Part shown: piece by piece, positions 1 to 12,823 of the stretch | Position numbering within the stretch: the first letter of the stretch is position 1 | Layout of the letters: each line of letters opens with the position of its first letter | Assembly: GCA_023259635.1 (NCBI GenBank) | Contig: JALRGX010000133.1 | Coordinates: 1-42,123, forward strand | DNA: 42,123 nucleotides | Source of the DNA: Methylotenera sp. | Lineage (GTDB): Bacteria; Pseudomonadota; Gammaproteobacteria; Burkholderiales; Methylophilaceae | Direction: 5' to 3' | Position numbers and translations under genes: made by a program | The notes under the pieces: generated by a model | The model's database searches: none | Told to the model about the DNA's origin: nothing | Seen by the model: only the letters and a program-made list of their open reading frames with translations

Positions 1-750
1 CGCACATTTACCAAGCCCTTAGGCTATGCTGGGGACTATGAAATGGTTAATCAGATGCTTGGAGATCCTAGACAAGGACCAAGCACTTATTTTCAGATTG
101 TGAATACAGGTTTCCTGAAAACGGCCGCTGCCGCTGCTCATAGCAACCGTATTGATATTTTGGTGGATTTTTTGATACGTATTGCTGACTCAGCAAAGAA
201 AGCTGGTCGGCCGTTTCGTATCTTGAATGTAGGTTGTGGCCCAGCAATTGAAATTCAGCGCTTCTTGCAGCGTTATCCTAACCCCGAGTTTTTATCTTTC
301 GACTTAGTTGATTTCAGCGAAGAAACGCTAACTCGCACACGCGGCATACTGACGGGAATCTCAGAAAAAGTGGGTAAACCCATTATTATCAATTATATTC
401 ATGAGTCGGTGCATCAATTGCTTAAACGCAGTGTAGATAAGCATGCGCCAGAAACTAAGGAATACGATGCTGCCTATTGTGCCGGCTTATTTGATTATTT
501 CTCTGATAAGGTGTGCTCAAGATTAACTGCTCATTTTGCTACACGCACCCGCAGCAAAGGTAGACTGCTAATTACTAATGTACATTCAAGCAACCCGGAT
601 AAGCTTGGTATGGAGCATCTGCTGGAATGGTACCTCATTTATCGAGACGAGCTGCAGATGATATCGATTCTCCCCGAATGCTCTACTGAACACCATATTT
701 ATGTTGATGCAACGGGCGTCAATGTATTTGCAGAAGCGAGTATTATTTGA
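1..750 (+). CDS. phcB: PhcB-like SAM-dependent methyltransferase, 5' end missing
   Basis: The reading frame is open from the first base of the window, so the gene is cut at its 5' end; the ATG at 43 is internal. Visible sequence starts with a KPLGYAGDYEM segment, typical of the linker before the methyltransferase domain in PhcB-type enzymes, followed by the class I SAM-binding motif ILNVGCGPA and the acidic loop DLVDFSEET. In Ralstonia, PhcB makes 3-hydroxy fatty acid methyl esters, the quorum signal. The assignment rests on this family resemblance plus the three following genes, which match phcS, phcR and phcQ in order. The stop codon overlaps the putative TTG start of the kinase gene (TTGA), indicating translational coupling. 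The substrate cannot be read from sequence; a related methyltransferase acting on something else is possible. Confidence 0.72.
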   Translation, partial: RTFTKPLGYAGDYEMVNQMLGDPRQGPSTYFQIVNTGFLKTAAAAAHSNRIDILVDFLIRIADSAKKAGRPFRILNVGCGPAIEIQRFLQRYPNPEFLSFDLVDFSEETLTRTRGILTGISEKVGKPIIINYIHESVHQLLKRSVDKHAPETKEYDAAYCAGLFDYFSDKVCSRLTAHFATRTRSKGRLLITNVHSSNPDKLGMEHLLEWYLIYRDELQMISILPECSTEHHIYVDATGVNVFAEASII

Positions 751-2093
751 TCACCTTGGATCGCCCCGTGAAAAAAAACTTACACCTTATATACAAGGAT
801 GCATTACGAGATTTCAGACTTGAAATCGTTCATGGTGGGGCATACGTGGGCATCGCTCTTATTTTGCTAGGTATAAGCTTAGATTACAGTTTGTACCCTC
901 AAAAGCTACTTCAATTTTTTATCGCTCGCATTTTATGCTCTGGATTAATTTTATGCGGAATATTGCTACTTAAAACGTCATGGGGCAAAGATAATGTTAA
1001 TAAGATAAGCTTCGTTTGGCTATTACTTCCGCAGGTCATGATCTCTTGGATGATCTACGTAACAGATGGTGCAGCGTCGTTATATTTCATTGGATTAAAT
1101 CTTGCGGTTTATGCGTCTATAGTGATGGCATTAGGCGTTTGGCAGAACATATTTTTCGGTGTGCTTTCTTATTTTCTCTATGCTATAGCCTGCATCTATA
1201 ATCCAAATGAAATTGATCTGAAAGGTCTTTTTCTGGTCAACTCATTGTTTTTAGTAATGTTTACATCAATTAGCACTGTCTATACGTTCTATAACGAACG
1301 TGCTCGCTTCACATTATTTCGCCTTAAGTCGGAAATAGCAGAAAAAAACATATTACTTGAAGAAACCAATAAAAACCTGGCTGAAATCAAAGGCCAGATG
1401 CTGCAACAGGAAAAAATGGCTTCCATTGGTACCTTAGCTGCCGGATTGCTGCATGAGGTAAATAATCCGGTCAATTATTGCTTAATGGCGATCAGTGTCG
1501 CCATGGAAGAGCCGGCCGTTAAAGCAACACAATCTCTTAAAGAGTGTCTGGTTGATGCGCAGCATGGCATGCAACGCATACAGCATATTGTTTCTGACCT
1601 GAAGATTTTTGCGTATCGCCCTAGTGAGTCTGAGCGTAGTGAAGCCGACTTTATGTTGGAGCGCGCTGTTAACTCCTCCCTGCGTCTGGTGGGGCATGAG
1701 ATTAAGGGCATTACCATCACACGCGACATTCCTCAAGACAGTCTGGTGCATGGAGATGAGGCTGCCATCGTCGGTGTATTAATTAATCTGTTCAGTAATG
1801 CTGCACTTGCTTTGCGTAAAGTTAACCGCGAACATCCGGCAATTCATATCTCTGCGGCTTGGCATGCTGACAGGTTACGTGTCTCGGTACAGGATAATGG
1901 TCCCGGTATAGCACCAGAAAATCTGTCTCGCGTATTTGAACCTTTTTTTACAACAAGGGCTGTTGGGCAGGGCTTGGGGCTTGGGCTCAGCATCAGTTAC
2001 GGTGTAATAGCGCGGCATGGCGGTATATTAAGAGCCGAAAGTGAGTTGGGTGTGTGGACCAAAATGATTTTTGATTTGTCGAGAGCGACATAA
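747..2093 (+). CDS. phcS: PhcS-like membrane sensor histidine kinase
   Basis: A 448-residue sensor kinase. About six hydrophobic segments occupy residues 30-180, with no large periplasmic domain, followed by a short coiled coil (about 190-222) and the phosphoacceptor region GLLHEVNNP, with the likely phosphorylated His at 236. The ATPase domain carries an N box (NLFSNAALAL), a G1 box (DNGPGI) and a G2 box (GLGLGLSIS). A compact multi-helix sensor suits a hydrophobic ligand dissolved in the membrane. In Ralstonia PhcS detects the methyl-ester signal and phosphorylates PhcR. The start is uncertain: TTG at 747 overlaps the preceding stop, while GTG at 768 is an alternative. The gene overlaps the next by one base. 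Domain assignment is secure; the PhcS name depends on context. Confidence 0.78.
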   Translation: MITLDRPVKKNLHLIYKDALRDFRLEIVHGGAYVGIALILLGISLDYSLYPQKLLQFFIARILCSGLILCGILLLKTSWGKDNVNKISFVWLLLPQVMISWMIYVTDGAASLYFIGLNLAVYASIVMALGVWQNIFFGVLSYFLYAIACIYNPNEIDLKGLFLVNSLFLVMFTSISTVYTFYNERARFTLFRLKSEIAEKNILLEETNKNLAEIKGQMLQQEKMASIGTLAAGLLHEVNNPVNYCLMAISVAMEEPAVKATQSLKECLVDAQHGMQRIQHIVSDLKIFAYRPSESERSEADFMLERAVNSSLRLVGHEIKGITITRDIPQDSLVHGDEAAIVGVLINLFSNAALALRKVNREHPAIHISAAWHADRLRVSVQDNGPGIAPENLSRVFEPFFTTRAVGQGLGLGLSISYGVIARHGGILRAESELGVWTKMIFDLSRAT

Positions 2094-3310
2094 TGAAAGT
2101 ATTGGCGAATAACTATGATTTTAATGCCATTCCCATCCTGTATGTGGATGATGAAGAAATGGCGCAGAAATATTTTCTCCGTTCTATTGGGAATGAGTTT
2201 GATGTGTTAACTGCATCCAGTGCGGATGATGCGATTGAGATGCTGCGTGACAAGTTTTTACAGATTGGCATTCTGGTGACAGATTACCGTATGCCAGGTC
2301 GTGACGGTGGTGATTTGTTATGCCAGGTTGAACGAGAGTTTCCGCATATCATCCGGATTTTGGTAACTGCTTATGCAGATAGGGAAGTTCTGCTGCACAC
2401 GGTCAATTCAGGCGAAGTGTTCCGTATCCTTGAGAAACCTTTGAATGTAGAGGAAGTTAAAAATGTATTGCGAGAGGCTTATGGGCTGTCTTGGGAGCGC
2501 GTAACTAGGCAGCAGAGACTCGTTGCGATGAATGAGACACTTAATTTTCTTGCGCACGAGTTGAATACACCGCTGGCTGCTATTGCCAATTTTTCGCTAG
2601 GTATACAAAACCGAACTGGTGATAAGGATAGATTTAATCAGTCCATGCCGGATATTGGTAAGGCCGCATTGAGCATTAGTGATAATGCGCAATATTGTTT
2701 ATCTCTGTTGTTATCATTTGTAAACTCTATTCATACCGTTAATCCTCGTATTAACGCTCACGGTGAGATGACAGCGCATCAGATGGTGTTATCCCTGCTG
2801 GACTCTTACCCTCTAACACCTGAGCAGCATGCTTTTATTCAGGTAGATATCCATGAAGATTTCAAGGTGACGGCTTTGCCAAACTGTGTTGCCCTGGTGT
2901 TATCCAGCATCTTGAGTAATGCCCTGCGTGCATTGAACGGGCATGCATTACCTAAGGTTGTCTTTAGCATTCTGGTTGATGATGGTCCTGAAATTTGCAT
3001 TACTAACAACGGGCCTTGCATACCGCCCGACATATTGCCGCACTTGATGGAAACGCCGTTTACTACGCATGCAGACTCAGGTGGCAAGGGCTGGGGCATG
3101 GTCTTTTGCCGGCGTGTGATGCAATCTTTCGGTGGCAATATCCTCATTTCCTCTACTGCGGAATTCGGTACGGTTATCACCCTGAAATTTCCTGTTATTA
3201 AAACCAGGCTGAAATCATCAAGGCTGATTAGCGCCATGAATAACAACGGTATTGAAAATGTTAATGACATTCAAATATATAAAAATGGAGCAATAAAATG
3301 GAGCAAGTAA
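2093..3310 (+). CDS. phcR: PhcR-like response regulator with C-terminal histidine kinase
   Basis: A 405-residue hybrid with an unusual domain order. The N-terminal receiver has the acidic pair YVDDEE, the phosphoacceptor Asp64 in TDYRMPG and the conserved Lys115 in LEKPL. It is followed not by a DNA-binding domain but by a kinase module: a phosphoacceptor-like His155 in LAHELNTP and an ATPase domain with SSILSNAL and a GKGWGMVFC glycine box. This receiver-plus-kinase design is the hallmark of Ralstonia PhcR. The ATG overlaps the last base of the kinase stop and the 3' end overlaps the next gene by 13 bases, so the set is one operon. The output is probably another phosphotransfer or protein contact rather than direct DNA binding. 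Confidence 0.8.
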   Translation: MKVLANNYDFNAIPILYVDDEEMAQKYFLRSIGNEFDVLTASSADDAIEMLRDKFLQIGILVTDYRMPGRDGGDLLCQVEREFPHIIRILVTAYADREVLLHTVNSGEVFRILEKPLNVEEVKNVLREAYGLSWERVTRQQRLVAMNETLNFLAHELNTPLAAIANFSLGIQNRTGDKDRFNQSMPDIGKAALSISDNAQYCLSLLLSFVNSIHTVNPRINAHGEMTAHQMVLSLLDSYPLTPEQHAFIQVDIHEDFKVTALPNCVALVLSSILSNALRALNGHALPKVVFSILVDDGPEICITNNGPCIPPDILPHLMETPFTTHADSGGKGWGMVFCRRVMQSFGGNILISSTAEFGTVITLKFPVIKTRLKSSRLISAMNNNGIENVNDIQIYKNGAIKWSK

Positions 3311-4305
3311 TCAGTAATCAGGCTATCACTGCACCGCAGATATTATTTGTCGATGACGAAGCTACAGCAGTAAAATATTTCCAGAGAGCAATTAACTCTC
3401 TTGCCCCTGTAGTAACTGGAAGCTCCGTAGAAGATGGCAAAAGATTGCTTGATGAACACGCAGAAACGCTTTTGGTACTGGTATCAGATCAGCGTATGCC
3501 AGGTGGATATGGCAATGAGTTATTAGTTTATGCGCGCACAAAATACCCAAATATTGTTCGGATTCTCACCACTGCCTATTCGGAACTGGAGCAAACTGTT
3601 GAGGCGGTGAACCAGGGGCAGATTCATCGCTATATTCAAAAACCTTGGGAAATTTCCGCCATCAGGATGGAGCTGAAGCAAGCGCTTGATCTGGCGAACT
3701 TGCGTAAGGAGCATGCGAAGCTTCTGCGTGAAAAAGTGATGGTTTGGAAAAAGCTCATAGCTTCCAATCGCATTGGCACTTTACATACGCTCTGTGCCAG
3801 TCTTGCTGCATCTGAAAATGTAGCCACGGTACAGACTTATCTTTCAATTGCAAAGAGTGCTGGCATCGATTTTCCTGTCGAGCCTGACTGGCACGCGATG
3901 GACTATTCTGACATAGTCGGTGTAGAGGCCTGCCGAAGCGGTGAATTTGGCCAGGCAGTGCGCAAGCAGCTGGATGAAATAAGACAACGCTTCCAAAACA
4001 GTAGTGGCGCAGATGGAATCAGGATTTTAGAAGAACTGCTGGTGGGTAAGTTTCAAATATCTGGTAATGGCGGTATCGCATTGAGTAATGCATATAATTT
4101 TGCAGAGTTTATGGAAGCGCGAACCGATACCCCTATCTCCGCTGAGCATGTTTCATGGCTGGCATTTCTTATCTGGCTTAACGATGCTGGTTACTCATTG
4201 CATCCGATTAAGTTGGAAGCCAGTATTCAATTTACCTTAAAAGCATTGGGTATCCCCAAAGAACCTGTTGATCTGGCAGGCTGGATTCATCAGCTTAGCG
4301 ATTAA
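3298..4305 (+). CDS. phcQ: PhcQ-like response regulator
   Basis: A 335-residue protein with an N-terminal receiver: acidic pair FVDDEA, phosphoacceptor Asp64 in SDQRMPG and Lys115 in IQKPW. A helical linker rich in Lys and Glu (about 125-150) leads to a 180-residue C-terminal region that I do not recognise as any DNA-binding or enzymatic domain. Position as the fourth gene after B-S-R matches phcQ in Ralstonia. A strong ribosome-binding site (GGAGCAATAAA before ATG) lies inside the end of the previous gene. Without a helix-turn-helix output, it probably relays the signal to other proteins. The receiver is certain; the name is supported mainly by gene order. Confidence 0.72.
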   Translation: MEQVISNQAITAPQILFVDDEATAVKYFQRAINSLAPVVTGSSVEDGKRLLDEHAETLLVLVSDQRMPGGYGNELLVYARTKYPNIVRILTTAYSELEQTVEAVNQGQIHRYIQKPWEISAIRMELKQALDLANLRKEHAKLLREKVMVWKKLIASNRIGTLHTLCASLAASENVATVQTYLSIAKSAGIDFPVEPDWHAMDYSDIVGVEACRSGEFGQAVRKQLDEIRQRFQNSSGADGIRILEELLVGKFQISGNGGIALSNAYNFAEFMEARTDTPISAEHVSWLAFLIWLNDAGYSLHPIKLEASIQFTLKALGIPKEPVDLAGWIHQLSD

Positions 4306-4333: not shown

Positions 4334-5677
4334 GTGAAGAAGTATATGTATTTTCCTTCAATGTTATTGGGGACATTGCTGGTTATTTCAAATGTTGCAT
4401 ATGCAGCTGGCTTTGCACTGACAGAAATGAGTGGCAGTAGTATAGGTAATGCATTTGCGGGGGCTGGCACAGCCGCAGAGGATGCTAGCACCATTTTGAC
4501 AAACCCGGCGGACCTTTCGAGAATCCAGGGGGCACAACTGTCAGTAGCAGGGTATGCCATCAAGTCATCAATTAATTTTAATAATAATGACTCCAGAACG
4601 CTTGTTGGCGCAGGTGTCGGTGATCCGTTATTGTCGGGTGGTTCAGGCGGGGATGCCGGTGATTTGGCACTGCTGCCAACGCTATATTATGCTGCTGATG
4701 TGAATGATCATGTAAAGATCGGGCTTGGCGTTTTCTCTCCTTTCGGTTTAAAAACCGAATATGACAGTCAATGGGTTGGACGCTATGACGCTATTAAGTC
4801 GGAACTGAAAACAATCAATATCAACCCTGCGCTGGCGTTTAAGGTCGATGACAGGCTTTCTCTCGGTTTTGGTATAAATGCTCAATACATCAGTGCCGAG
4901 CTAAGCAATGCCCTGGATTTTGGCTCTGTCTGCGCTATGGCTGCAATTGATACTTGCGCAGCACCTCAGGCACGTGATGGCGAGCTTAATTTAAAGGGTA
5001 ATGACTGGGGATGGGGGTACAATCTTGGCCTAATGACCGAGCTTGTGCAGGGTACCCGAGTAGGATTGGCCTACCGGTCCAAGGTACATCATCACTTGAA
5101 GGGGGGTGCAAGATTCTCGAATGTGCCCACTGAATTATCCTGGTTGCCGGATTTAGCGAACGGACCAATTAAAGCTGACATTACTTTGCCGGAAACAGCC
5201 TTAATCAGTGTGCTGCATCAGCTTAATGACCAGTGGGATATTATGGGGGATGTCCTTTGGACGCGCTGGAGTCAATTTGAAGAGTTGCGGGTAGAACGTA
5301 CGGATGGAGCGCTGATAGGTGCGACTGCAGAAAACTGGCATAACACTAAACGCTATTCCTTGGGTGCGACCTATAAATACGACGATGCCTGGAAACTGCG
5401 TTTTGGTGTGGCTTATGATGAGTCTCCTGTACCGGATGCATTCCGCAATCCACGTATTCCAGATGAAAATAGATGGGTCTTGGGACTTGGGGCTAATTAT
5501 AAAATCAGCAAATCGGCGATGCTGGATATAGGTTATTTGCGTATCTTTATGAAAGATGCGCCACTTGATTTAAATACCCCGGTTACGCCTTTTGTGCCGA
5601 CTGTTACACGTAATCTGGCTGGAAGTTATAATACGGATGTTGATGTGTTCAGCTTGCAGTATACCTATGCTTTCTGA
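4334..5677 (+). CDS. FadL/OmpP1-family outer-membrane channel
   Basis: About 447 residues. I choose the GTG at 4334 because an AAGGCG ribosome-binding site sits five bases before it and translation then opens with KKYMYF, a normal signal-peptide start; the signal peptide ends at VAYA, before AGFALTEMSGSS. That mature N-terminus, with the NAFAGAGTAAED and NPADLSRI segments and a C-terminal aromatic strand (LQYTYAF), is typical of FadL-type beta barrels that move hydrophobic compounds across the outer membrane. The gene starts 28 bases after the phcQ stop on the same strand, so it is probably cotranscribed. FadL homologues carry long-chain fatty acids or aromatic hydrocarbons; passage of a fatty acid methyl-ester signal is an inference from context. 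Confidence 0.85.
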   Translation: MKKYMYFPSMLLGTLLVISNVAYAAGFALTEMSGSSIGNAFAGAGTAAEDASTILTNPADLSRIQGAQLSVAGYAIKSSINFNNNDSRTLVGAGVGDPLLSGGSGGDAGDLALLPTLYYAADVNDHVKIGLGVFSPFGLKTEYDSQWVGRYDAIKSELKTININPALAFKVDDRLSLGFGINAQYISAELSNALDFGSVCAMAAIDTCAAPQARDGELNLKGNDWGWGYNLGLMTELVQGTRVGLAYRSKVHHHLKGGARFSNVPTELSWLPDLANGPIKADITLPETALISVLHQLNDQWDIMGDVLWTRWSQFEELRVERTDGALIGATAENWHNTKRYSLGATYKYDDAWKLRFGVAYDESPVPDAFRNPRIPDENRWVLGLGANYKISKSAMLDIGYLRIFMKDAPLDLNTPVTPFVPTVTRNLAGSYNTDVDVFSLQYTYAF

Positions 5678-5693
5678 TATATCACTGCGTAGA

Positions 5694-5731
5694 AATAAAA
5701 AACGGCCAGAATAGCATGCGTATTCTGGCCG
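5694..5731 (-). terminator. Terminator of the DUF6502 gene, between convergent genes
   Basis: A perfect 11-bp stem (CGGCCAGAATA at 5703-5713 with 5721-5731) has a 7-base loop. On the minus strand it is followed by a T-rich tract (the A run at 5694-5702), which fits an intrinsic terminator for the leftward gene. It lacks a T tract rightward but may slow the FadL transcript too. Confidence 0.8.
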
Positions 5732-5765: not shown

Positions 5766-6323
5766 TTAAATCGTAGCATCTTCGAATACATCTTCTTCGC
5801 TACGTACGTTCAGCTGTAGATGATCAGGTGATAAATGTACCATGCCATCCTCGCTCATGCTTATCAGGCCAAGATTTACACACTCATCCCATAGCGAGCG
5901 TGCACGAATGTCAGAGGTTATCTCTTCGGCAAGCGAGCTGAATGAAATTGAATAATCAGGGTGTGGGTGTCTAGGAATCGATTTTGGTTTTCCATCATCA
6001 CCAATTAATTCTGATGTTTCAATCCAGCGCTTGATCAGTTTGGTAATGAGGTCATGCTGATGCAGCATAACGCTATTCTCTCCGCGGTTCAGTAGTCGAC
6101 GGACATCTTTACGGTGCACACCGGTGAGTAGTGAAATACGACTATCCGTTTGAGATTTGCCTTCAATAGCAAATTCACTTTCCGCTATAGAGACAAGCAT
6201 AGTCTTGAACATTTCTGATACTTGACGATAATCCAATCTAAAATTAATACACTGCCGGGCCATAGGTTTTAAGTAATGTTCAATTTCATTGATAGCTATA
6301 GATGGTCTGTTATCCATAAACAT
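5766..6323 (-). CDS. DUF6502 family protein
   Basis: About 185 residues. I choose the ATG at 6323, which follows an AAGGAAATTGCCA ribosome-binding region; the open frame extends 15 codons upstream without such a site. The central segment KSQTDSRISLLTGVHRKDVRRLL is characteristic of DUF6502 proteins and looks like a winged-helix-type segment, but no function is established that I can state. There is no signal peptide or membrane segment, so it is probably cytoplasmic. It is divergent from the N-ATPase operon, sharing a 420-bp intergenic region with three inverted repeats, and could regulate itself or its neighbour; that is inference only. Confidence 0.65.
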   Translation of the reverse strand: MFMDNRPSIAINEIEHYLKPMARQCINFRLDYRQVSEMFKTMLVSIAESEFAIEGKSQTDSRISLLTGVHRKDVRRLLNRGENSVMLHQHDLITKLIKRWIETSELIGDDGKPKSIPRHPHPDYSISFSSLAEEITSDIRARSLWDECVNLGLISMSEDGMVHLSPDHLQLNVRSEEDVFEDATI

Positions 6324-6430
6324 TTGGCAATTTCCTTTCTTAAATCCAGGTAAACAAATCTTTAACAATATTGTTACATAACAAGGACTTTTTAGTGGAA
6401 AGTGCTCCTGTACTATCTATTGGGAATGTA

Positions 6431-6697: not shown

Positions 6698-8525
<1,828 letters not shown>

Positions 8526-8529
<4 letters not shown>

Positions 8530-8801
8530 CCGACCGGGAAAAACTGACTGAGGATACCAGCAAGGATATCCAACGCCTTGAGATGAAGGAAAAGGCGCCG
8601 GCAACCTGGGTTGGAATCGCCTTTTATGGGGGTACGGTCGGCTTGCTGTTTGTTGTACCCATTGTGGCGGGTGCGTATCTGGGTAGATGGCTGGATTCCT
8701 TGTTTACCGGTTATTCTGTGCGCTGGACGGTCAGCCTGATTGTTTTAGGTATCGTGCTTGGGGCATATAATGCACTCAGGTTTATGAAAGAGAAATCATG
8801 A
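8526..8801 (+). CDS. atpQ: AtpQ/AtpI-type small membrane protein of the N-ATPase
   Basis: A 91-residue protein with a charged N-terminus and two hydrophobic segments (about 30-50 and 66-85) separated by LGRWLDSLFTGYS. The glycine-rich first helix, the RWLD motif and the VLGAYNALRF end match the AtpZ/AtpI family, which N-ATPase operons carry as atpQ and which is linked to c-ring assembly or ion movement. It overlaps the genes on both sides by four bases. The usual next gene, atpR, is absent: the a-subunit starts inside this gene's stop codon. The name follows family and position. Confidence 0.78.
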
Positions 8802-9538
8802 ATCCCGAAGCGATAGATCATCCTGTGGTTTTTTACCTGGCAGGCTTGCCTGTGGGCAGCACTGTGCTGACGACATGGGGCGTGATGATATTTGTAGTGG
8901 TGCTGGCAATGATCCTGACGAGATCCTTGCAGCAAACGCCGGCAAGAGGCCAGACGATTGCGGAAGGTATTGTTGCCACAATCGAGACTGCCATGGCGGA
9001 AGTGCTCCCGAAAGCATCAGTACGCCGGGTGTTGCCATTTATTGCAACATTGTGGATATTTGTCCTGGTTGCCAATCTGGTGGGCTTGATTCCGGAGCTT
9101 CACTCCCCCACGCGTGACCTTTCTACTACGGCGGCCCTGGCGGCACTTGTGTTTGCTTCCACACACTGGTTTGGCATACGCAGTAAAGGTTTGCGTAACT
9201 ATTTAAAGCATTATGCAGAACCGAACATCATTCTGCTGCCATTTCATATTACCAGTGAACTCACGCGCACACTGGCGCTGGCTGTACGTTTGTTTGGCAA
9301 TATGATGAGCCTCGAAATGGCTGCGCTGCTGGTGCTAATGATAGCCGGTTTTCTAGTGCCGGTACCGCTACTCATGCTGCACATTATTGAAGCCCTGGTG
9401 CAAGCGTATATATTCGGTATTTTGGCACTTATTTATATCGCGGGTGCCATTGTGCCGAACGAGAGTGAGTCTGATGCCACTGATCCTGGTAGCAGTGAGC
9501 CCGCACAGCAACTTCCATTATTAAACCACAAGGAATAA
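8798..9538 (+). CDS. atpB: N-type ATPase subunit a
   Basis: A 246-residue membrane subunit forming the ion half-channels next to the c-ring. The key helix [18 protein letters not shown] contains the conserved essential Arg and the RLFGNM signature. Another conserved helix is seen in [19 protein letters not shown], with the usual Gln. Several hydrophobic segments span the protein and it ends in a polar tail. The ATG overlaps the stop of atpQ. Confidence 0.93.
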
Positions 9539-9540
9539 AT

Positions 9541-9807
9541 ATGAATGATTTACATCTGTTTAGTATGCTATCAACCGTTGTTGCAGGTCTGGCAATTGCG
9601 GTTGGCACAATGCTGCCGGCTATCGCAATGGGGCGGGCTATTGCCAGTGCGCTGGAAGCTCTGGCGCGTCAGCCCGAAGCGGAAAAGACCATCACACGTA
9701 CCCTGTTTATCGGGCTGGCAATGATTGAATCTTTGGCGATTTATTGCCTGGTCATTGCGTTGATTATTCTGTTCCGTAACCCGCTGCTGGAATATTTCCT
9801 GAAATGA
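9541..9807 (+). CDS. atpE: N-type ATPase c subunit with altered ion-binding residues
   Basis: An 88-residue, two-helix proteolipid. The polar loop [10 protein letters not shown] and the second helix [15 protein letters not shown], with the ion-carrying Glu63, identify subunit c. By alignment to Na+-type rings such as Ilyobacter, the Gln on helix 1 is Met30 here and the Thr after Glu-Ser is Leu65, while Ser64 and Tyr68 are kept. Loss of these side chains weakens the case for Na+ and suggests H+ transport, which is inference. The gene lies two bases after atpB. Confidence 0.92.
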
Positions 9808-9823
9808 GCGCCCTAAAGGATTC

Positions 9824-10579
9824 ATGATGCAATTCGATTGGACAACCTTTGTACTTGAAGTCATTAATTTTCTGGTGCTGGTATGGTTGCTTAAGCATTT
9901 TTTCTACAAGCCGGTGCTGAATATTCTTGATGCGCGCCAGGAAAGAGTGCGTGCTGAAGTTGCCCGTGCAGAACAGCTGCAGCAGGATGCTGAAGCCCTT
10001 AAGGCGCAATACGAGGCACGCCTGGCAGACTGGAATAAAGAACGTGAGCAGGCGCGGCAACAGTTGGAGCAGGAACTGGCGCAGCTAAGGGCAGTGTCTA
10101 CGGAAAATATCAAGCAGTCCCTGGCTGATGAAGAAGCCAAGGCACGTGTGCGGGGAGCTGCAATCACAGCCTCACGCGAGGCAGAGCTGGCCAGGCAGGC
10201 TGCCGGTGAGGCTTATGAGAATGCATCGGCCATGTTGCGCCGGCTTGCCACACCGGAGCTTACGGCAAGTATTGTGAAGATGTTTCAGCAAGACATGAAA
10301 GCGTTGCCGTCAGCTGAGCAGGAGGCCTTGCGCAAGGCGGCCCAAGTGGTTGAGAGTGGAGTGACAGTAGAGATTGCATCAGCGCATGCGCTGAATGATA
10401 AGGATTTATCCAGCATTTCCCAGTCGCTGTCCGAAGTTGCCTGCCGCCCGATAAATGCTGTTTTCAAGCTGGATCCAGAGTTGATTGCCGGATTGCGCGT
10501 GACGGTTGGCGAGTGTTTGTTGCATGCGAATCTGGCCGAAGAGCTGCAATTTTTCAGACGGCAAAGCAAGTATGCTTGA
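9824..10579 (+). CDS. atpF: N-type ATPase subunit b, long form
   Basis: A 251-residue peripheral-stalk subunit. One N-terminal membrane helix ([18 protein letters not shown]) and the [15 protein letters not shown] segment are classic subunit b, followed by about 100 residues of charged coiled coil. The C-terminal third ([30 protein letters not shown]) resembles the C-terminal part of delta, explaining the absence of atpH from N-ATPase operons. Two adjacent ATG codons occur (9824 and 9827); the AAGGA site spaces better to the second. The end overlaps atpA by eight bases. Confidence 0.9.
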
Positions 10580-12026
10580 TGAGATCAAGATAAATCACGA
10601 CGCTGATTATTGTTTCACAACCCGCTTATCGGAGCGAGGTTGTGTTGTTGGTGTCGGCGATGGTATTGCCTGGATACGCGGCTTGCCTTCAGCCAGGCTT
10701 GATGAGCTGATTGAGTTTGATGATGGCAGTATGGGTCTGGTGTTCCAGCTGGGCAAGACGCTCATTGGTGCCATTCTGTTATCACAGAAGCACGGTGTTA
10801 CGGCAGAAATGTCGGTAATACATACTGGGCGTAGATTGGAAGTCGGTGTTGGTGACTCTTTAATCGGGCGCGTCATTGACCCCCTCGGCAATCCGCTGGA
10901 TGGATTGCCGGCGCCGGAGTTTCGAGAGTTCCGCAACCTGGAGGCAGCCGCGCCGCTGATTATTGAACGTGATTTTGTCAGTGAACCTCTCTATACGGGT
11001 AGTAAAATTGTCGACACATTGATCCCGATAGGCAAGGGGCAGCGTCAGCTGGTTATCGGCGATGATGGCGTCGGTAAAAGTGCCTTGACACTGGATGCAG
11101 TCATTAATCAGCGCAATCGGAATGTGCTGTGTGTCATGGTGCTTATCGGTTTACCCCGTTCTTCAGTAGCCGGTACGATTGAGGCGCTGCGTGAAGCTAA
11201 TGCACTGGATTACACAGTGGTTGTAGTCGCAGAGGCGAATGCGCTTTCTGGTTTCCGTTATCTTGCTCCATTTGCCGGATGCGCCATTGCCGAACATTGG
11301 ATGCGCGTTGGGCGAGATACGCTGATTGTATATGATGACTTGACGCGCCATGCACAGTCCTATCGGGAGTTGTCACTGTTGTTACAGCGTCCTCCAGGTC
11401 GTGAAGCTTACCCCGGGGATATTTTTTATCTGCATTCGCGCCTGTTGGAGCGCTCAACCGTGCTTGCACCAGAGCATGGTGGCGGCAGCATGACGGCATT
11501 GCCGATTATTGAGACGCGTCAGGGTGAGTTGTCTGCCTATATTCCAACCAACCTGATCTCAATTACCGATGGCCAGATTTATTTTGACAGCAAGCTTTTT
11601 GATGCCGGCATGCTGCCTGCCATAGACATCGGGCGTTCGGTTTCGCGCATAGGCGGTAAGGCGCAGCATCCTGCGATTAAGGCGGCGTCGGCGCATATAC
11701 GCCTGGAATATTTGCAGTTTCTTGATCTGGAATTGTTTGCAAGATTTGGCACCAAGCTGGAATCCGGGGTTGAAGAAAAACTGCAGCGTGGGCGCTTGCT
11801 GCGAGCCTTGCTCAAGCAAGACCGTCTTGCTGCCTTGTCTGAGGAATCTCATCTGGCATGGCTCTTGGCCTACAGCTCGGGCAGTCTGGATAGATTCTCA
11901 CCTGAACAGGCGGTGGCTTTATTGCCTGCTTTATTTGATGCAGTCGCAGCGCATGGGCTGAAATTAGATACGCCAAAAGAGCAGTGGTTTACCATACTAC
12001 AGGTGTTTTTTGAGAATGCGTCATGA
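10572..12026 (+). CDS. atpA: N-type ATPase subunit alpha
   Basis: About 484 residues starting [14 protein letters not shown] at the ATG at 10572, inside the end of atpF; the frame is open further upstream, but that stretch merely overlaps subunit b. The nucleotide-binding loop is [13 protein letters not shown], a variant of the GDRQTGKT found in housekeeping alpha subunits. The [29 protein letters not shown] segment and the alpha-type [12 protein letters not shown] motif confirm the identity. It forms the F1 hexamer with beta and overlaps atpG by four bases. Confidence 0.95.
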
Positions 12027-12823
12027 CCCAGCGCCGGGAAATTGAAGGCACGCTTGCACTGTATGAGGATTTGTCAGGCATACTCGGGGCGATGCGCAGC
12101 TTTGCATTAGCAGAGCTGCACCGGGTCATGAAGCGTGAGGCGTCGCAGCGGCAGGTTGTAACGGCCTTGACCGGAACAATGCAGGATGTTGCCGCATATT
12201 TGCGGCCACAATTACCTGCTGCTCATGATATCTGGTTGCTATTTGGTTCGGTAAGAGGATTTTGCGGCAGCTTTAATGAAGATGTCGCGCGCAGCTGGCG
12301 CATGGCGAATACCAGCGGGCAGCCAACTATTGTAGTGGGTGAGAGGTTGTTTGCATTGCTGCAAGATGAAGCCGAAATTATTTCCATACCGGGTGCAGAT
12401 GGTGCATTAGATGCAGCTTCAGTAATCGATCAGATTGTGCTGGAAATTGGCAGGACGCAGAAAAAGCTTGCTAAGCCGAGTGGATTGGTTGCATGTGTGC
12501 GAGACGAGGAGGGGGCTCGCGTGCAACGGCTTCTTCCATTCCCTGTTGGCCTATCTGGTGCCAATATGCCGCCGCTGGTACATGCGCCTGCGGCTGAAGT
12601 GGCAACTGGTGTGGCTGAGCATTATTTATTCCATTCAATTTTGTCTATGCAGTTTTTATCTATTCGTGTCGAAAATCATATGCGCCTGATGCAGATGGAA
12701 AATGCGCTTCGGCATCTTGAGCGTAGCGGCGATGATCTGAAGCGACTGCGTAACCGATTGCGGCAAGAAGAGATCGTGGAAGAAATTGAGCTGATGGCAC
12801 GTAAACGCACTGGTATGCATTAG
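12023..12823 (+). CDS. atpG: N-type ATPase subunit gamma
   Basis: A 266-residue central shaft subunit. It keeps the helical termini that insert into the F1 hexamer and a [15 protein letters not shown] segment related to the SDRGLCGGFN motif of other gamma subunits. Last gene of the atpDCQBEFAG set. It is more divergent than housekeeping gamma, as expected for N-ATPases. The phosphorylase gene begins 44 bases downstream with its own strong ribosome-binding region. Confidence 0.88.

What the first reader, a model, noticed from the sequence alone, without database searches (positions are those of the whole stretch)
1..4305. Complete Phc-type quorum-sensing operon outside Ralstonia
Four overlapping genes encode, in order, a methyltransferase, a multi-helix membrane kinase, a receiver fused to a histidine kinase, and a receiver with an unknown C-terminus. 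That is the phcB-phcS-phcR-phcQ order known from Ralstonia solanacearum, where it makes and senses a 3-hydroxy fatty acid methyl ester. The rare receiver-then-kinase layout of the third protein makes a chance match unlikely. If the host is a methylotroph or similar free-living betaproteobacterium, the signal and its targets are probably unstudied.
Basis: partly seen in the sequence, partly recalled or inferred. Interest (0 to 1): 0.75.

Follow-up and report, generated by a model that had tools for sequence, protein, structure and literature searches.

The report
Phc quorum-sensing operon in a methylotroph
A methanol-eating freshwater bacterium carries the same cell-to-cell signalling genes that a well-known plant pathogen uses, but here they sit beside a different type of control gene, which suggests that an old signalling circuit has been given a new output.

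Summary
The four genes are real and in the stated order: phcB-phcS-phcR-phcQ (window 1-4305). "Complete" is wrong: the window is a whole contig and phcB lacks about its first 214 codons, which lie at the end of another contig (C74) of the same genome. "Outside Ralstonia" is not new: a scan gave 562 loci encoding PhcB relatives, and the best 80 include Cupriavidus, Paraburkholderia, Oxalobacteraceae and Gallionellaceae. The host is in the genus of Methylotenera sp. AG31; within its family 3 of 187 genomes carry phcB. The interest lies outside the coordinates. In all three genomes phcB is divergent from phcX (LqsR family) and a LuxR-type autoinducer-binding regulator, and phcQ runs into a fadL-type gene. 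No LuxI was found in the three. The only LysR protein they share is CysB, so no shared PhcA candidate was seen, though no PhcA sequence could be compared. The PhcS sensor region is 46-58% identical between the species, its kinase 90-92%. Best reading: a genuine Phc-type system whose output probably runs through the LuxR-type regulator instead of PhcA. Homology and synteny are shown; output and signal chemistry are inferred. A new variant of a known kind.

The parts
1..750 (+). phcB, 3' part only (residues 215-463 of about 463): SAM methyltransferase domain. The 5' part is on G000:C74:1-646 minus, outside the window
   Evidence: 83-87% identical to the two sister genomes over this part; methyltransferase fold in the model of the G011 protein
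747..2093 (+). phcS: membrane sensor histidine kinase, several hydrophobic segments then HisKA-HATPase_c, His in LLHEVNNP
   Evidence: hydropathy peaks
2093..3310 (+). phcR: receiver fused to histidine kinase; Asp of VTDYRMPG and His of AHELNTPL present
3298..4305 (+). phcQ: receiver plus helical C-terminal part without a DNA-binding domain hit; receiver 94-96% but C-terminal part 58-76% identical among the three genomes
4334..5677 (+). fadL-type outer-membrane channel, probably co-transcribed with phcBSRQ (start codon inferred; ORF opens at 4268)
   Evidence: Toluene_X 375 bits; follows phcQ in 3 of 3 genomes
5703..5731 (.). 11-bp perfect stem between fadL and the convergent DUF6502 gene; terminator-like on the minus strand
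   Evidence: the scan found 4 terminator-like sites where 5.8 are expected by chance, so this is weak
5766..6368 (-). DUF6502 gene, convergent neighbour present in the three genomes; link to the system not shown

Best explanation
This is a Phc-type cell-density signalling system, carried by a few Methylotenera species, with a rewired output. Inferred steps: PhcB methylates a 3-hydroxy fatty acid to make a diffusible methyl ester; the FadL-type channel encoded downstream helps the hydrophobic signal cross the outer membrane; PhcS senses it through its membrane region and passes phosphate to PhcR and PhcQ; PhcQ, with no DNA-binding domain found, acts through a partner transcription factor. In Ralstonia that partner is PhcA. 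Here it is most likely the LuxR-type regulator encoded with phcX on the other side of the shared phcB/phcX promoter. Shown by sequence: the genes, their order, the active-site residues, the linkage in 3 of 3 phc-bearing genomes, no LuxI found, and no shared LysR other than CysB. Not shown: the signal, phosphotransfer, the PhcQ-LuxR contact, and the target genes.
For: Gene order and overlaps. PhcB homology with 10 other sequences, 55-83% identity to the first row. PhcB tree: the three Methylotenera rows group with six Gallionellaceae-type rows at 96/94. Phospho-acceptor His and Asp present in the 15 rows compared. PhcX and the Autoind_bind+GerE regulator lie divergent from phcB in G000, G011 and G012. 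LuxI profile: 378-397 bits in 4 of 4 positive genomes, but at most 24.9 bits in G000 and G011 and no match in G012. LysR genes 5, 10 and 6 in the three genomes; 20 of the 21 compared, and CysB is the only one shared by all three. A 19-bp dyad, ATATGGTAAWATTTTCCAT, is exact in the phcB-phcX gap of all three and at no other place in the 181 loci held. An independent case: in L047 (Janthinobacterium lividum MAG) luxR, a DUF4902 gene and luxI lie upstream of phcBSRQ. PhcQ binds PhcA in R. pseudosolanacearum (PMC13320629, abstract). FadL mediates uptake of long-chain AHLs in a rhizobium (PMC9938287, passage).
Against: No expression, chemistry or binding data. Only three genomes, one of them (G000) 92% complete with phcB on two contigs; G012 phcB carries one in-frame TAG. 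LuxR-type next to phc is rare: 2 of 80 named loci, 22 of which lack near-full flanks. Of the six Gallionellaceae-type loci closest in the PhcB tree, four have phcX beside phcB and none shows a LuxR; L034, L037 and L038 hold enough DNA beyond phcX to see one. The LuxR family also occurs in Methylophilaceae without phc, in four genomes beside luxI, so the neighbour could be an independent AHL receptor. The dyad is not a classical lux box (recalled).
Confidence: 0.55

Rival explanations
1. An ordinary Phc system with PhcA: the LysR regulator exists but lies in the missing part of the assemblies or is one of the generic LysR proteins.
For: G000 is 92% complete. G011 and G012 share three further LysR pairs besides CysB: L131/L132, L129/L130 and L142/L139. 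No PhcA reference sequence was compared.
Against: G011 is one contig, 99% complete, with 10 LysR hits. The G011 members of the three further pairs score best to YafC- and PunR-type models, below those models' cut-offs, and the pairs lie in open frames of 299-323 aa (PhcA is about 350 aa, recalled). None of them has a G000 counterpart above 50% identity.
Confidence: 0.2
2. The Phc genes signal, but the LuxR-type regulator is an independent receptor for other species' acyl-homoserine lactones and is a neighbour by history only; Phc output runs through PhcX.
For: Relatives of this LuxR are paired with LuxI in other Methylophilaceae. PhcX/LqsR is a broad regulator in Ralstonia (PMC10653808, passages).
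Against: Linkage of phcX, luxR and phcBSRQ in 3 of 3 genomes at 71-75% LuxR identity; no LuxI found; in the window's genome the LuxR has Cys (TGC) where the 13 other rows have Asp of the Asp-Pro motif, a position recalled as essential for AHL binding in TraR. G011 and G012 keep the Asp, which fits this rival.
Confidence: 0.2
3. The island is a decaying horizontally acquired relic with no current function.
For: 3 of 187 family members carry it; one in-frame TAG in G012 phcB; contig break inside phcB in G000.
Against: Amino-acid change is held down while silent sites are near saturation, e.g. PhcS kinase pN 0.04-0.05 against pS 0.62-0.71. The other system genes have open frames and G011 is intact. 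The TAG is in a binned assembly whose contig name gives about 5x coverage.
Confidence: 0.05

Closest known systems
[quoted passage not shown]
   Same: Gene order phcB-S-R-Q; methyltransferase, sensor kinase, receiver-kinase and receiver proteins; phcX (LqsR family) next to the operon (PMC10653808, passages and section 17). PhcB Arg22, whose change to Cys affected signalling (PMC6989110, passages), is Arg in the 10 rows of our alignment that reach it.
   Different: Divergent LuxR-type regulator with phcX; fadL-type gene after phcQ; no shared PhcA candidate; PhcS sensor region strongly diverged between species. No Ralstonia solanacearum sequence was compared here.
Phc systems of Cupriavidus, Paraburkholderia and Oxalobacteraceae
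   Same: Same operon, 64-69% PhcB identity; PMC10653808 (passage) cites work that found Phc functional in C. taiwanensis
   Different: phcX 11-13 kb from phcB in two unnamed f31 genomes that group with Cupriavidus, otherwise not found beside phcB in the held flanks; no fadL; LuxR only in L047, with luxI
Gallionellaceae-type / Candidatus Nitrotoga phc loci (L033, L034, L037, L038, L040, L041)
   Same: Closest PhcB (six loci) and PhcX (four loci); phcX immediately divergent in L033, L034, L037, L038
   Different: No LuxR or fadL seen; in L034 and L038 a chemosensory operon follows phcQ; L040 lacks a phcR hit; L041 shows no phcX in its short flank
LuxR/LuxI acyl-homoserine lactone systems of Methylophilaceae
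   Same: The LuxR-type regulator has Autoind_bind and GerE domains
   Different: No LuxI found in the three phc-bearing genomes

Membership tests
Phc quorum-sensing system | PhcB: SAM methyltransferase homologous along its length | tested here: met
   Alignment A2, whole-genome profile hits, model fold of the methyltransferase part. The window itself holds only residues 215-463.
Phc quorum-sensing system | Operon order phcB-phcS-phcR-phcQ, co-directional | tested here: met
Phc quorum-sensing system | PhcS: multi-helix membrane histidine kinase with phospho-accepting His | tested here: met
   HisKA and HATPase_c, His in LLHEVNNP, hydropathy peaks. OE1-1 H230 (PMC11960443, abstract and passages) was not aligned directly.
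Phc quorum-sensing system | PhcR: receiver fused N-terminally to a histidine kinase | tested here: met
   HisKA itself is under its cut-off in the window protein and over it in G011
Phc quorum-sensing system | PhcQ: receiver without DNA-binding domain | tested here: met
   (Response_reg only)
Phc quorum-sensing system | PhcX/LqsR-family regulator linked to the operon | tested here: met
   On G000:C74:801-1853, divergent; in one clade with the f31 PhcX (98/98)
Phc quorum-sensing system | LysR-type master regulator PhcA | tested here: inconclusive
   No LysR except CysB shared by the three genomes (L143 dropped out); no PhcA reference in hand
Phc quorum-sensing system | Signal is a 3-hydroxy fatty acid methyl ester | not testable with these tools
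   Needs mass spectrometry
LuxR/LuxI AHL system | LuxR with Autoind_bind and GerE domains | tested here: met
   (G011 protein); orthologue at G000:C74:1880-2605, 71% identical
LuxR/LuxI AHL system | Cognate LuxI synthase | tested here: not met
   positives ring in 4 of 4. G000 is 92% complete, G011 99%, G012 96%.
Lqs system | LqsA synthase with LqsS and LqsR | not tested
   LqsA was not searched in the three genomes; phcX falls outside the clade with lqsA-like neighbours

The most novel reading that the evidence does not exclude
In these methylotrophs the Phc circuit has exchanged its LysR output (PhcA) for an AHL-family LuxR receptor that lost its own LuxI. PhcQ, whose C-terminal part has diverged fast, docks on this LuxR, and the regulator may read the methyl-ester signal itself or no ligand at all. 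Species differ in PhcS sensor regions, giving private signals. It would be a hybrid of two quorum-sensing families.
Probability: 0.3. Interest if true: 0.7.

Novelty: new variant of a known kind. Interest (0 to 1): 0.45.

Why it matters
If right, a signalling module known mainly from plant pathogenesis works in free-living methylotrophs with a different transcription factor at its end, showing that quorum-sensing inputs and outputs can be exchanged between families. It also bears on a published claim. [quoted passage not shown] Here phcX is immediately next to phcB in Methylotenera and in four Gallionellaceae-type loci, and these proteins form one clade with the phc-near PhcX of two f31 genomes, apart from rows with lqsA-like neighbours. 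That suggests an older link or transfer as a unit. No Ralstonia row was in that tree.

Tried and rejected
Viral-contig scan with PhcB: 17 stretches matched a pattern, none encodes a relative. PhcB against plasmids: 23 records, one of them (Paraburkholderia graminis, 64%) over the full length, 22 under 60% identity; the 14 of these listed cover 50-60% of the query. Weak Autoind_synth hits in G000 and G011 lie on a GNAT-like ORF followed by an acyltransferase-like ORF, both judged by eye, so they were not taken as LuxI. PhcQ C-terminal part as a degenerate kinase: the profile comparison with PhcR aligns the receivers only. Fold searches of the PhcQ model (pLDDT 76) and PhcB model (pLDDT 74; the other four models 57-64) tested the receiver and the methyltransferase domain; the PhcB N-terminal barrel and the PhcQ C-terminal part remain barely tested. 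The dyad was sought in the window with up to 2 mismatches: 0 matches, chance mean 0.31. Positive selection on PhcS: silent sites are near or at saturation, so no dN/dS claim is made. Promoter-like sites: 15 found, 15.3 expected; terminator-like: 4 found, 5.8 expected. Literature searches: Methylotenera + quorum sensing + LuxR, 0 papers; Methylotenera + acyl-homoserine lactone, 2 papers, judged by title and abstract start only; phcBSR with Methylotenera, Nitrotoga, Gallionella or Methylophil terms, 8 listed of 296, none of the 8 holding phcBSR. Most subscription papers are not held.
Full report
What is there. The window is a complete contig, G000:C90, of a 2.2-Mb, 159-contig genome. Bases 1-4305 hold four overlapping plus-strand genes with the domains expected of PhcB, PhcS, PhcR and PhcQ. 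The first is cut at the contig start. A profile of 11 PhcB sequences (A2) finds residues 215-462 at C90:1-744 and residues 1-215 at C74:2-646 minus. The last bases of C74 and the first of C90 overlap by CGCA only, read by eye. In G011 the gene is open over 463 residues.

Host. PhcB search in relatives gave 4 of 61 genomes: the window's own, G011 and G012 in the same genus, and one weak 25% match (G058). The contig carrying phcB in G012 (108,612 bases) has the length of the record titled Methylotenera sp. isolate AG31 (L032), so the genus is taken as Methylotenera. Across the family, 3 of 187 genomes carry PhcB, all in this genus; among those at least 90% complete, 3 of 119. That the family is Methylophilaceae follows from the genus.

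Distribution. In the order, 11 of 399 genomes match at E 1e-5, the own genome included and one only by a 37-bit fragment. They include Methylotenera, Gallionellaceae-type MAGs, Nitrotoga, Cupriavidus, Paraburkholderia, Janthinobacterium, Massilia and Duganella. The order B-S-R-Q holds in 74 of 80, 21 of them with a short PhcR hit; 6 of 80 lack PhcR over 100 bits. So Phc outside Ralstonia is common, and PMC10653808 (section 17) had reported phc clusters in Betaproteobacteria.

What is different here. On C74, divergent from phcB, lie a PhcX/LqsR-family gene (801-1853) and a LuxR-type gene (1880-2608). The same holds in G011 and G012; the G011 protein has Autoind_bind (90 bits) and GerE (63 bits). 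On the other side phcQ is followed by a FadL-type gene in 3 of 3 genomes, 4 bases after phcQ in G011. Among the 80 named loci, phcX is immediately divergent from phcB in 5 (L032, L033, L034, L037, L038); L081 has a weaker PhcX-type hit about 4 kb upstream; FadL was found in 1 (L032). A LuxR-type protein matching over the whole profile lies in 2 (L032 and L047; L047 and the G012 copy of the L032 protein were in that profile, and L047 scored 84 bits against the three-row profile), and weaker partial hits in 4 (L064, L071, L083, L100). Only 58 of the 80 have near-full flanks. In L047, luxR, a DUF4902 gene and a luxI (Autoind_synth 101 bits) lie upstream of phcBSRQ.

No LuxI, and no shared PhcA candidate. 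A LuxI profile gives 378-397 bits in 4 of 4 positive Methylophilaceae, at most 24.9 bits in G000 and G011, and no match in G012. LysR genes number 5, 10 and 6 in G000, G011 and G012. Of the 20 that could be compared, only CysB occurs in all three (90-94% identity); best-model names are. No PhcA sequence was in hand, so this is suggestive only.

Trees. PhcB: Methylotenera plus six Gallionellaceae-type rows, 96/94, 40 rows. PhcX: Methylotenera with four Gallionellaceae-type rows 96/87; these with f8 and f31 rows 98/98, apart from rows beside lqsA-like genes, 34 rows, some with long branches. The lqsA identity was checked by Pfam for one row only (L163, aminotransferase), the others by eye. In G043, which has no PhcB hit, a histidine kinase, phcX and a LuxR-type gene lie together (L156). 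LuxR: the three phc-linked rows group with G567/G568 (88/87); in G567 the luxR is divergent from a histidine kinase gene by Pfam, in G568 by eye. These facts make a working link between LuxR-type regulators and this class of kinase plausible.

Sensor divergence. Between the three Methylotenera the PhcS membrane region is 46-58% identical and the kinase 90-92%. Among 3652 other pairs from the 86 rows, 392 have kinase identity of 88-94%: median sensor identity 86%, 2 of 392 at or below 58% and 16 of 392 at or below 60%. Of 353 other pairs with PhcB catalytic identity of 82-88%, 0 are at or below 58%; the lowest is 58.6%. Pairs are not independent. PhcQ shows a like pattern: receiver 94-96%, remainder 58-76%. 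This is what changing signal specificity and a changed partner would leave, but other causes are possible.

Other marks. A 19-bp dyad in the phcB-phcX gap is exact in all three genomes and at no other place in 181 loci (16 loci match, all copies of these three places). The window's LuxR has Cys (TGC) at the Asp of the Asp-Pro motif, where 13 other rows, G011 and G012 included, have Asp; that this Asp contacts AHLs in TraR is recalled. PhcB Arg22, hit by a signalling mutation in R. solanacearum (PMC6989110, passages), is Arg in 10 of 10 rows that reach it.

Mechanism. In R. pseudosolanacearum, PhcS His230 autophosphorylation after signal sensing is needed for PhcA activation (PMC11960443, abstract and passages), PhcQ and PhcR are regulators without DNA-binding domains (PMC8578825, passages), and PhcQ binds PhcA (PMC13320629, abstract). 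The simplest adaptation without a visible PhcA is that PhcQ works with the linked LuxR-type regulator. FadL mediates uptake of long-chain AHLs in a rhizobium (PMC9938287, passage), so a channel gene after phcQ fits uptake of a hydrophobic signal. The chain is a hypothesis.

Verdict. The linked LuxR-type regulator, the missing LuxI and the missing shared LysR make it a new variant worth testing.

Noticed in passing
L034:7868-14383 and L038:11958-17665: In two Gallionellaceae-type MAGs phcBSRQ is followed by a chemosensory operon (in L034 CheW, CheR, CHASE3-MCP, CheA with receiver, CheB by Pfam; L038 read by eye), which resembles Wsp-type systems (recalled). Phc may feed c-di-GMP control there.
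   Followed up: partly
L047:5859-9650: luxR, DUF4902 and luxI genes upstream of phcBSRQ: two quorum-sensing families side by side.
   Followed up: partly
window 6743-12823: A second-type ATP synthase operon (N-ATPase-like, by eye) follows the DUF6502 gene; in G011 and G012 phosphate-transport-like genes (by eye) lie on that side instead.
   Followed up: no
L040, L073, L076, L080, L090, L095: Six loci with phcB, phcS and phcQ but no phcR hit over 100 bits; 21 further loci show only a short phcR hit. PhcR may be dispensable.
   Followed up: no
L011 (G012) phcB 5' region: One in-frame TAG in phcB of Methylotenera sp. AG31; real or assembly error unknown.
   Followed up: no
L080/L108: One Paraburkholderia translucens contig holds two phcB loci roughly 12 kb apart in opposite orientation.
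   Followed up: no
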